DNA of 64,000 nt from a virus. Shown here piece after piece: positions 8,256 to 18,185 of the stretch (position 1 is its first letter; each line of letters starts with the position of its first letter). The position numbers were made by a program, and so were the translations under genes. A model generated the notes under the pieces. The model saw nothing but the letters and a program-made list of their open reading frames with translations. It searched no databases and was not told the origin of the DNA. The stretch is taken from positions 1 through 64,000 of the IMG/VR virus record IMGVR_UViG_3300030098_007087. One strand, written 5' to 3'.

Positions 8256-9101
8256 ATGCAAGATCTGAAAAAACACGTCATGTCTTTCTTTCCTTTTGCC
8301 CAAAAACAACTTGGGTTTAAGAGACCACCTAAATTATTTTTTGTTAATGACAAACAAAACGCTGGTGAAATTTTGGGAAAGACTGCTTATTACGAGCCAG
8401 AGACAGAAACTATAAAAATTTATGTTACAAATAGGCACCCCAAAGACGTGCTTAGATCTTTCTCGCATGAACTTGTTCATCATGCCCAAAACTGTCGCGG
8501 AGATTTTGATAACGACACAGTGACAGAAGAAGGGTATGCACAAAACGATCCACATTTGAGAGAGATGGAAAGAGAAGCATACGAAAAGGGAAATATGATA
8601 TTTAGAGACTATTGCGATGGTCTCACTAACAACGGAGGATTAGAACAAATGTCTATGACAGAAGATAAGCTTAGAGAAGCAGTAAGAGCAGCTATTCAAA
8701 GATTAGCAGAAAAAGGTGGTGCAAAACCAGACTTCCTTGATTTGGACAAGGACGGAGATAAAGAAGAGTCTATGAAAGATGCAGCAGCAGACGCCGATGA
8801 TAAGAAGAAAGTTGATGAGGCATCTCTTGCCGATGATCCAACTGCCGCTGAAGAGGCTGAAGCCGCAGAAAGAGCCGCAGAAGGTGGTGAATCTGAAACA
8901 AAAGTGAACGAAGAAGATGAACTGGAAGAGTCCCCATCTCACCCTGCTAGCGACAGATCTCAAGGTCGTGACACTGGTAGGAGAGTAAAGGATGTCAACT
9001 CTGGTGAGAGAAAAGAAGTTGCGGAGTCTGTTGATGAACTCAAAGAATGGTATTTAGGAACACTTTCTGAGAGCTTGATTAAAAAGTTTACACAGAAATA
9101 G
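8256..9101 (+). CDS. Metallopeptidase-like virion protein with acidic tail (281 aa)
   Basis: Start at ATG 8256 (GGAG at 8243) rather than TTG 8241. The N-terminal 110 residues contain HELVHH (71-76), an HExxH zinc-peptidase signature, in a SprT-like setting. Then follow the tag MTEDKLREAVRAAIQRLAEK, a calcium-loop-like DLDKDGDKEE and a long Glu/Ala-rich tail. Similar combinations occur in head-core or scaffold-type proteins of marine T4-like phages. It begins a run of three or four virion-type genes. The peptidase motif is seen; a role in head maturation is inference. Confidence 0.75.
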   Translation: MQDLKKHVMSFFPFAQKQLGFKRPPKLFFVNDKQNAGEILGKTAYYEPETETIKIYVTNRHPKDVLRSFSHELVHHAQNCRGDFDNDTVTEEGYAQNDPHLREMEREAYEKGNMIFRDYCDGLTNNGGLEQMSMTEDKLREAVRAAIQRLAEKGGAKPDFLDLDKDGDKEESMKDAAADADDKKKVDEASLADDPTAAEEAEAAERAAEGGESETKVNEEDELEESPSHPASDRSQGRDTGRRVKDVNSGERKEVAESVDELKEWYLGTLSESLIKKFTQK

Positions 9102-13471: not shown

Positions 13472-13509
13472 AAAATACCTACATATGCTATTGTGTGTGT
13501 AGGTATTTT
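13472..13509 (+). terminator. 12-bp AT-rich hairpin ending at the next start codon
   Basis: AAAATACCTACA (13472-13483) and TGTAGGTATTTT (13498-13509) are perfect complements around a 14-base loop. As a terminator it would end transcription from 12620-13453. The right arm also holds the only AGG ribosome-binding candidate (13501-13503) of the next gene, whose ATG is at 13511, so the hairpin could mask that start. Confidence 0.6.
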
Positions 13510-13510
13510 T

Positions 13511-13849
13511 ATGTCTAAAAAACAAAACAACAGAATTGGCGCTAATAGTAATTTTAGCATCTCTAGAAAACTTAAGAATGATGGCAAGACATCTGAAGAA
13601 TTTGAAGTTATGTTGAACAACCTTTCGTTGGAAGAAATAATTTCTCTAAAATTAGAGCTTGCATCAAAAATAATGAGAGGTAATCTTTTTGGTTTTCCAA
13701 TTATAAAAGCAATGCCCAACATTGTTAGGGACGCCCTTATAACTTTTGCACTGTCAGCCACAAAAAACCAGTCAGAAGCTGCATCTTTGTTGGGAATTAC
13801 CGTTCAAGAATTAAAAAAATATAATTTAGACTCTATAATGAATAAGTGA
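13511..13849 (+). CDS. Small Fis-like helix-turn-helix protein (112 aa)
   Basis: ATG 13511 (MSKKQNN) is preferred to an upstream in-frame GTG at 13493, which lies inside the hairpin loop. The C-terminal 40 residues, ALSATKNQSEAASLLGITVQ followed by ELKKYNLDSI, match the Fis-family HTH pattern (N-Q-S-E-A-A-x-L-L-G-I). The first 75 residues are helical with no clear domain. It sits between a hairpin that overlaps its binding site and a structured RNA that begins at its stop codon, so its expression may be controlled post-transcriptionally. Likely DNA-binding regulator; target unknown. Confidence 0.65.
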   Translation: MSKKQNNRIGANSNFSISRKLKNDGKTSEEFEVMLNNLSLEEIISLKLELASKIMRGNLFGFPIIKAMPNIVRDALITFALSATKNQSEAASLLGITVQELKKYNLDSIMNK

Positions 13850-13973
13850 TCATGGAAATTGTAAACTACCAACTTTCACCTTCCATGCCTCTAACGAAGG
13901 TCGTAATGTGTTGACGAGAGGCTAGTAATGCAACCAACGAGGGGGTTGTACCTTTTTCATGATCACTTTTTTT
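13844..13973 (+). ncRNA. Structured RNA element: long closing stem, pseudoknot, hairpin and U-tail
   Basis: A 15-bp stem (13844-13858 with 13954-13968, one G-U) starts at the stop codon of the Fis-like gene and ends in a T-run (13967-13973). Inside, ACCTTC 13878-13883 pairs with GAAGGT 13896-13901, and GCCTCT 13887-13892 pairs with AGAGGC 13917-13922. The strands are interleaved, so the two 6-bp helices form an H-type pseudoknot. CAACC 13931-13935 and GGTTG 13944-13948 form a further hairpin. All listed inner pairs are Watson-Crick. It may be a terminator with added structure, a processed small RNA or a cis-regulator. I recognise no known RNA family. Confidence 0.6.
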
Positions 13974-14040: not shown

Positions 14041-14430
14041 ATGAGAAATTTATTTATTGCAACAATGCTGGTTTTCAGCGTAGTTGGGTGTCATGAAGAT
14101 GACTGTGATGAGGCAGTAGTTGCCGAAGAAGAGGTTGCTGAAGAGGAATCTGAAGAAGCCGAAGAGGATGCTGACGCTGAAGAAGAAGCTGACACTGAAG
14201 AAGAAGCAGAAGAAGAAGCAGAAGAGTCTGAAGAAGAGGAAGCTGAAGAAGAGGAAGCTGAAGAAGAAGCCGAGGAAGAGGTGGAAGAAGAAGCTGACGA
14301 AGAAGAAGCTGACGAAGAAGAGGTAGAAGAGGAAGTCTCCGAGGAAGAGGCTGAAGAGTCCGAAGAATCTGAAGAAGATGCCGAAGAGGTTGAAGAAGAA
14401 GAGGAAGAGGACGAAGAGGAAGAAGAGTAA
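14041..14430 (+). CDS. Lipoprotein with extreme poly-glutamate tail (129 aa)
   Basis: AAGGAG site upstream of ATG. The signal MRNLFIATMLVFSVVGC ends in a lipobox, with the lipidated residue at Cys17. From residue 18 on the chain is almost only Glu with Ala, Asp, Ser and Val, giving a very high negative charge and no expected fold. The DNA is a GAA/GAG low-complexity tract that may change length by slippage. The signal resembles that of the next gene (MRNFIIVSMIAFGLIAC), suggesting duplication of the leader. Possibly a membrane-tethered polyanion that binds cations or repels rivals; this is speculation. Confidence 0.75.
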   Translation: MRNLFIATMLVFSVVGCHEDDCDEAVVAEEEVAEEESEEAEEDADAEEEADTEEEAEEEAEESEEEEAEEEEAEEEAEEEVEEEADEEEADEEEVEEEVSEEEAEESEESEEDAEEVEEEEEEDEEEEE

Positions 14431-17042: not shown

Positions 17043-18185
17043 ATGGAAGATTTAGACATACCATCATTAGATATTGAAGATTTTGATATGGAAGAAGCTG
17101 CCGCAGCAAAAACAGATGAAATTGAAGATGAATCAGGAGGTGCACTAACATACGCAATTATTGGTTCTGGGCAAGGTGGTGGTCGTATCGCCAAAGCATT
17201 TTATGATTTGGGATATAAAAAGACTGTTGCTATTAATACAGCCAAATCAGATTTAGCGCTGCTGGATCTTCCTGATAATCATAAGTTCCATTTGGATTGT
17301 TTCGGTCAGCAAGGGGCTGGTAAAAATCAGGAAAAATCAAAAGAGGCGTTTGAGCTAAAGGGTCAAGAAATTTTCAATAAACTCAGAGAAGTGTTTGGCG
17401 AAAAAATTGATCGTATTTTGATTTGTGTTGGAGCCGCAGGAGGAACCGGGGGAGGAAGTGTATTGCCCTTGGTTGATATTGCAAAAAGATATTTTACATA
17501 TGTAGGAAAAGAGGATGCATCTGAGCGTGTTGGCGTCATCGCATCGTTGCCAACCAGTGGAGAGTGTGCGTCACCAGTTGTGGCAAACAATGCATATAAT
17601 AGAATTCAATCTCTCTGTGCTAGTGCTGCTAATGGTGATTTTGCTCCCCTTGTAATGATTGATAACGATAAGATTAAAAAACTATATCCCAAATTGACTG
17701 TGAAGAAGTTCTGGCCTACGCTAAATAACACAATCGCTGGTTTGTTTCATGTCTTCAATCTTCTTGCAACTAAAAACTCTGATTATACTACTTTTGACCC
17801 AGCAGACTATGACACTGTTATGAAAACAAAAGGTTGTATGATTTTTGGCGTTACAACAGTAAAGGATGTTGAGCATGAAACTTCTATCGCGACAGCTTTG
17901 AAGAGTAACCTTGAAAAGACTCTTTTGGCAACCGGGTTCGATTTGACAACCGCTCAAGGCACAGCCTGTGTTGTTGTTGGAGGAACAACCATTTATGAAG
18001 AGGTTGCAGGTCTCATGGACTCTATCGAATATGGCTTTGATACGCTGGCAGCTATTACTGGTGGCGCAGTTGTTCATAGGGGTATATACGAAGACCCAAA
18101 AAAGGATAAATTAGTCGCTTATACAATGGTAGGTGGGCTAGATGCACCGGCAAAAAGACTAGAAGAACTGCGTAAGTTTCTATAA
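17043..18185 (+). CDS. Tubulin/FtsZ-family GTPase (380 aa)
   Basis: After an acidic leader of about 35 residues, YAIIGSGQGGGRIAKAF gives the first nucleotide loop and GAAGGTGGGS (about 130-139) is the tubulin/FtsZ signature. TTFDPADYDTVM (about 248-259) aligns with the FtsZ T7 loop and keeps both acidic residues needed for GTP hydrolysis across the subunit contact. The C-terminal domain (GTACVVVGGTT, YTMVGGL) is FtsZ-like; no conserved FtsZ C-terminal peptide is seen. Jumbo phages use a tubulin (PhuZ) to position DNA. This protein is closer in pattern to FtsZ and may build filaments or disturb host division. AAGGAG site upstream. Confidence 0.88.
   Translation: MEDLDIPSLDIEDFDMEEAAAAKTDEIEDESGGALTYAIIGSGQGGGRIAKAFYDLGYKKTVAINTAKSDLALLDLPDNHKFHLDCFGQQGAGKNQEKSKEAFELKGQEIFNKLREVFGEKIDRILICVGAAGGTGGGSVLPLVDIAKRYFTYVGKEDASERVGVIASLPTSGECASPVVANNAYNRIQSLCASAANGDFAPLVMIDNDKIKKLYPKLTVKKFWPTLNNTIAGLFHVFNLLATKNSDYTTFDPADYDTVMKTKGCMIFGVTTVKDVEHETSIATALKSNLEKTLLATGFDLTTAQGTACVVVGGTTIYEEVAGLMDSIEYGFDTLAAITGGAVVHRGIYEDPKKDKLVAYTMVGGLDAPAKRLEELRKFL

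What the first reader, a model, noticed from the sequence alone, without database searches (positions are those of the whole stretch)
13844..13973. New candidate structured RNA with an H-type pseudoknot
A 15-bp closing stem, interleaved perfect 6-bp helices and an extra hairpin occupy the whole spacer between the regulator stop and a sigma70 promoter. A plain terminator does not need an inner pseudoknot. I match it to no known phage RNA family.
Basis: partly seen in the sequence, partly recalled or inferred. Interest (0 to 1): 0.75.

Follow-up and report, generated by a model that had tools for sequence, protein, structure and literature searches.

The report
New conserved pseudoknotted phage RNA family
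The 130 bases encode a real small RNA with a conserved knot-like fold, belonging to a previously unlisted family found in many uncultured phages, usually next to their ribosome-rescue RNA (tmRNA) or tRNA genes, and probably working as a free RNA during infection.

Summary
The window lies in an uncultured virus record (119.6 kb). The spacer after a small Fis-like gene holds a roughly 125-nt RNA gene. A sigma70-like promoter places the start at the foot of a 15-bp outer stem. An H-type pseudoknot (P1, P2) and a hairpin (P4) follow, and the outer stem runs into a U-run terminator.

At least 34 other loci in uncultured viruses carry the same architecture. P1 and P2 both covary (91% of cells paired; 68 double-changed cells versus 22 in shuffles). 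One P2 pair is A-U, C-G or G-C in 8 sequences each. P0 and P4 differ in sequence but pair everywhere. A model built without the window finds the window RNA as the only hit in its record.

No Rfam family matches. It is not tmRNA, a glutamine riboswitch or T4 rnaC/rnaD. Records with the RNA usually also carry tmRNA (20 of 22, versus 11 of 28 without it). It also stands alone here, and lies about 42 kb from tmRNA in another phage, which argues for a trans-acting RNA. A role beside tmRNA or translation is inferred, not shown. Novelty: a new family of phage structured ncRNA, function unproven.

The parts
13811..13839 (+). promoter-like site of the RNA gene: TTAAAA-17-TATAAT, inside the 3' end of the upstream gene
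   Evidence: the start it implies (about 13846) is the foot of the outer stem; many relatives have TTGACA-17-TA(G/T)(A/T)AT 8-20 bases before theirs
13844..13858 (+). P0, 5' arm of the outer stem (overlaps the TGA stop 13847-13849 of the upstream gene)
   Evidence: 0 of 40 shuffles score as high; all seven innermost pairs vary by double changes across 35 loci
13878..13883 (+). P1, 5' strand (ACCTTC)
   Evidence: covariation
13884..13886 (+). L1 (CAT; mostly AAT in relatives)
   Evidence: alignments A2/A4
13887..13892 (+). P2, 5' strand (GCCTCT)
   Evidence: covariation
13893..13895 (+). L2 (AAC); in the larger subgroup the first base pairs into P2 and the base before it is bulged
   Evidence: column 16-68 is AU 8, CG 8, GC 8, GU 1
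13896..13901 (+). P1, 3' strand (GAAGGT)
   Evidence: covariation
13902..13916 (+). L3, length about 10-60 in relatives, often with its own small hairpin (here CGT/ACG); ends in a conserved (G)UUGAAR-like stretch
13917..13922 (+). P2, 3' strand (AGAGGC)
   Evidence: covariation
13923..13928 (+). conserved joiner TAGTAA (TAGYNT)
13929..13950 (+). P4 hairpin TGCAACC-AACGAGGG-GGTTGTA; the loop resembles the GYGARRA loops of relatives; abuts P0 in nearly all relatives
13954..13968 (+). P0, 3' arm of the outer stem
13967..13973 (+). T7 run after the outer stem: intrinsic-terminator-like end of the RNA
   Evidence: other stand-alone copies (L110, L117, L119) also have T-runs here
13523..13849 (+). 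upstream gene: small protein (about 108 aa) with a Fis-like HTH; lies directly upstream of the RNA in 32 of 35 loci
   Evidence: HTH_8 weak, Fis by profile and fold, weak

Best explanation
It is the gene of a free-standing, trans-acting small RNA of about 125 nt. Shown by sequence and comparison: a conserved fold of outer stem P0, pseudoknot P1/P2, optional hairpin in L3, hairpin P4 abutting P0, and a strong promoter-like site placed at the start of P0 in many relatives. Inferred: transcription starts at the foot of P0; P0 plus the U-run ends it here, whereas in most relatives the transcript runs on into a tRNA-Gly or tmRNA gene and is presumably cut out. The compact RNA is then stable and acts in trans, most likely by binding a protein or the ribosome through the conserved pseudoknot face, the UAGYNU joiner and the GYGARRA loop. 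It probably supports the phage's translation or ribosome-rescue programme, with which it is co-expressed and co-inherited.
For: Fold: P1 and P2 covary in 17 sequences found through the neighbouring protein gene and in 35 in all. P0 and P4 pair in all 35 with about 30 different P0 sequences. A model without the window finds the window as the only hit, 31.5 bits, E about 1e-4. RNA gene rather than leader: promoter positions; downstream is usually tmRNA or tRNA. Trans: it stands alone before a U-run here and in L110, L117, L119; in record G023 it lies about 42 kb from regulator plus tmRNA. No tmRNA was found in the window's 119.6-kb record. Link to tmRNA: 20 of 22 records with the RNA have one, against 11 of 28 without it (Fisher p 0.0003, or 0.0006 with the window's record counted as a negative).
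Against: No expression data. The tmRNA association is not corrected for relatedness, and the records are fragments. The window's own record lacks tmRNA in the part held. In L035, L054, L099 and L115 a protein gene follows within about 20-40 bases, so a leader role is possible there. Some relatives lack a clear promoter near P0. No target or partner was identified.
Confidence: 0.62

Rival explanations
1. A cis-acting element of the tRNA/tmRNA operon: a processing, folding or 5'-protection module that sets the 5' end of the downstream tmRNA or tRNA precursor.
For: Most copies lie 3-60 bases before tRNA-Gly or tmRNA on the same strand.
Against: Copies with no tRNA/tmRNA next to them (window, L110, L117, L119, L037) keep the full fold, and one is about 42 kb from the phage's tmRNA. 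Several phages have tmRNA directly after the regulator with no such RNA (L018, L021, L022, L027).
Confidence: 0.17
2. A riboswitch or attenuator-type leader that senses a ligand and controls the downstream gene.
For: Compact pseudoknots are typical of small riboswitches; a glutamine riboswitch lies with a tmRNA in the marine phage Melnitz (PMC9004378); in the window a promoter and lipoprotein gene lie downstream.
Against: Downstream genes are mostly tRNA or tmRNA, or in the window a terminator followed by a separate promoter. No Rfam riboswitch matches. No alternative terminator/antiterminator pairing was seen.
Confidence: 0.1
3. Only a long transcription terminator of the regulator gene, with a decorated loop.
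For: P0 followed by T7 looks like a terminator here and in other stand-alone copies.
Against: The inner pseudoknot covaries and is the best-conserved part, while a terminator needs only the stem. Most relatives lack a long U-run after P0 and read on into tRNA/tmRNA.
Confidence: 0.04
4. A decoy or mimic of a cellular RNA (rRNA, tmRNA domain) that titrates a host factor.
For: The stretch GCUAGUAAU also occurs in 16S rRNA; P4 abutting P0 recalls a tRNA minihelix (inspection only).
Against: Similarity to E. coli 16S, 23S and 5S rRNA is no better than shuffles; no tmRNA or tRNA model hits the RNA.
Confidence: 0.07

Closest known systems
Phage T4 stable RNAs rnaC and rnaD (species 1 and 2)
   Same: Small RNAs of about 120-140 nt of unknown function encoded beside phage tRNA genes
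   Different: No match to the model (best 9.9 bits, none in rnaC/rnaD) and a different predicted fold
tmRNA (RF00023) and permuted tmRNA (RF04321)
   Same: Contains pseudoknots; encoded next door in many of these phages
   Different: No tRNA-like domain or tag reading frame; tmRNA is a separate gene downstream
Glutamine riboswitches (glnA RNA / Downstream-peptide RNA)
   Same: Pseudoknotted RNA reported beside a tmRNA in marine phage Melnitz (PMC9004378)
   Different: No Rfam match to either family even at E up to 10; no regulated protein gene here
Large phage-associated ncRNAs such as GOLLD and ROOL
   Same: Structured noncoding RNAs carried by phages, near tRNA genes for GOLLD (own knowledge)
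   Different: Those are several hundred nt and oligomeric; this is about 125 nt; no Rfam match
Intrinsic (rho-independent) terminators
   Same: Outer stem plus U-run in the window copy
   Different: Covarying inner pseudoknot; most relatives have no long U-run

Membership tests
The RNA family described here | P1/P2 H-type pseudoknot with 3-nt L1 and 2-4-nt L2 | tested here: met
   window 51.3 bits with R1, 31.5 bits with window-free R3; covariation
The RNA family described here | outer stem P0 enclosing the core and P4 hairpin next to P0 | tested here: met
Any Rfam 15 family | score above the family's gathering threshold | tested here: not met
   only tRNAs and tmRNAs reach threshold; nothing relevant at E up to 10
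Glutamine riboswitch (glnA / Downstream-peptide) | match to its covariance model | tested here: not met
   E up to 10; E up to 5
tmRNA | tRNA-like domain and tag reading frame | tested here: not met
   ARAGORN and RF00023 find tmRNA only downstream in relatives; none in the window record
T4 rnaC / rnaD | sequence and structure homology | tested here: not met
   filters off: no hit in rnaC/rnaD
Intrinsic terminator | stable stem directly followed by a U-run | tested here: met
   13844-13973; explains the outer stem only, and only in stand-alone copies
Self-cleaving ribozyme | cleavage activity | not testable with these tools
   no Rfam ribozyme match; activity needs an assay
Trans-acting sRNA | discrete stable transcript acting in trans | not testable with these tools
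   only promoter and terminator positions and context support it

The most novel reading that the evidence does not exclude
A new class of phage ncRNA that works together with phage tmRNA (or phage tRNAs and the small Fis-like protein) in a phage-encoded ribosome-rescue or translation-takeover module, the pseudoknot RNA being a separate partner component without a bacterial counterpart.
Probability: 0.25. Interest if true: 0.85.

Novelty: new variant of a known kind. Interest (0 to 1): 0.64.

Why it matters
It adds an RNA family with strong covariation support, an unusual pseudoknot core and a clear genomic setting, absent from Rfam. Phages that carry their own tmRNA are poorly understood. A conserved companion RNA and a companion protein gene give a concrete, testable handle on why phages bring ribosome-rescue genes, and on phage stable RNAs of unknown function in general (an open question since T4 rnaC/rnaD).

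Tried and rejected
Rfam search in gathering and permissive modes on the window and five relatives: nothing for this RNA. T4 rnaC/rnaD: not related. Similarity to 16S/23S/5S rRNA: no better than shuffles. Cultured phages: no blastn or tblastn relative of RNA or regulator; L103 hits cultured phages only through its tRNA-Gly. Bacterial and archaeal genomes: the pattern scan gave two chance hits inside coding sequence (18.6 and 14.6 bits). Pattern hits L097, L136, L137, L140-L142 are also coding and chance. SmpB: none in 50 records. Model R2 was given one unintended extra pair (columns 94/103); it was used only for a secondary search. It weakly picks up L049 and L016 at the expected place (14.2 and 13.3 bits), alongside equally weak hits elsewhere. 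L030, L063 and L072 look like divergent members by eye only.

Full report
What was checked. The outer stem pairs 13844-13858 with 13954-13968 (11 perfect pairs, one G-U, three A-U) and is followed by T7. P1 (ACCTTC/GAAGGT) and P2 (GCCTCT/AGAGGC) interleave with loops of 3 and 3 nt, and a third loop of 15 nt. A further hairpin (13929-13950) sits between P2 and the outer stem. Shuffled versions of the stretch rarely hold such a pseudoknot (16 of 2000) or such an outer stem (2 of 2000), but the window as a whole has about 30 comparable pseudoknots by pattern, so conservation had to decide.

Finding relatives. The window belongs to an IMG/VR record of 119,587 bases. The protein encoded just upstream (13523-13849) has relatives only in uncultured virus contigs; nothing in cultured phages. 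Reading the spacer behind that gene in those contigs showed the same RNA architecture with different sequences. Further copies were found by DNA patterns and a covariance model. One pattern scan of 85,000 bacterial and archaeal genomes gave only two chance hits, consistent with a phage-borne RNA.

Structure evidence. In the first alignment (17 sequences, found through the neighbouring protein gene, though rows were picked by eye), 88.9% of P1/P2 cells pair against 76.6% in shuffles. Sliding the partner by one to three columns drops this to 35-62%. In 35 sequences the figure is 89-91%, with 54-68 double-changed cells against 19-22 in shuffles. In the larger subgroup one U of P2 is bulged and the next base pairs instead: A-U 8, C-G 8, G-C 8, G-U 1. 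P0 and P4 can be drawn in all 35; P0 has 30 different 5' arms and its seven innermost pairs all show several pair types. Because P0 and P4 were found by maximising complementarity, their counts lean towards pairing; the P0 score beats all 40 shuffles in the window and about half the loci, but not in every locus. A model built without the window (R3) finds it as the only match in the 119.6-kb record, at 31.5 bits.

Gene organisation. In the window a TTAAAA-17-TATAAT site ends at 13839, so a transcript would begin at about 13846, the foot of P0. A large group of relatives has TTGACA-17-TAGAAT/TATTAT 8-20 bases before P0. Downstream lies, in most relatives, tRNA-Gly(TCC) or a tmRNA within 3-60 bases. 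In the window and in L110, L117 and L119 the RNA stands alone and P0 runs into a T-run. In record G023 the RNA is at 106.6 kb while regulator and tmRNA are at 64 kb. The RNA is therefore a movable unit and not an obligatory part of the tmRNA gene.

Link to tmRNA. Of 50 records searched whole, 22 have the RNA (one clear copy each; one record has a second, weak match), and 20 of these have tmRNA above threshold. Of 28 without a model hit, 11 do (Fisher p about 0.0003, or 0.0006 with the window's own record counted as a negative). The records are fragments and related to each other, so this is suggestive only. No SmpB gene was found in them, so phage tmRNA probably relies on host SmpB. The small protein upstream of the RNA is predicted helical with a Fis-like C-terminal HTH, by weak profile and fold matches, and also sits directly before tmRNA in phages that lack the RNA.

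Interpretation. The best-supported mechanism is a trans-acting, compactly folded small RNA expressed from its own promoter. A role beside tmRNA or tRNAs in phage translation is inferred from context and co-occurrence and remains unproven. Cis-acting processing, riboswitch and plain-terminator readings explain less, as listed under rivals.

Comparison with what is known. No Rfam family matches. Glutamine riboswitches occur near a permuted tmRNA in marine phage Melnitz (PMC9004378), but their models do not match here. T4's rnaC/rnaD are analogous in setting, not homologous. Five literature searches aimed at this RNA or its setting found no description of it, but most subscription papers, and supplementary files, were not searched.

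Noticed in passing
L042, L051, L032, L119 upstream of the RNA: Strong ribosome-binding-site-like sequence followed by a mini-ORF of 2-8 codons (for example GGAGGCATCCTATGTATTCGTGA in L051) between promoter and RNA.
   Followed up: partly
L018, L021, L022, L027, L062, L075, L086, L088: The Fis-like small protein gene is directly followed by (or overlaps) a tmRNA gene even where the pseudoknot RNA is absent: a conserved protein-tmRNA gene pair in phages.
   Followed up: partly
window 13472-13509: 12-bp perfect inverted repeat (AAAATACCTACA/TGTAGGTATTTTT) with a T-run: likely terminator of the preceding gene, overlapping the start region of the regulator ORF.
   Followed up: no
window 14041-14430: Lipoprotein-like ORF made almost wholly of Glu/Asp-rich repeats, directly downstream of the RNA, with its own promoter-like site.
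   Followed up: no
window 17043-18185: Tubulin/FtsZ-family (TubZ-like) protein in this phage and in six of the relatives near the RNA.
   Followed up: partly
G026:C1:161814-161912: Second, weak match to the RNA model (23.3 bits) in a record that has a strong copy at 8731: possible diverged paralogue.
   Followed up: no
L009 8069-8277: Group I intron match (RF00028, 59.7 bits) in a relative that lacks the RNA.
   Followed up: no
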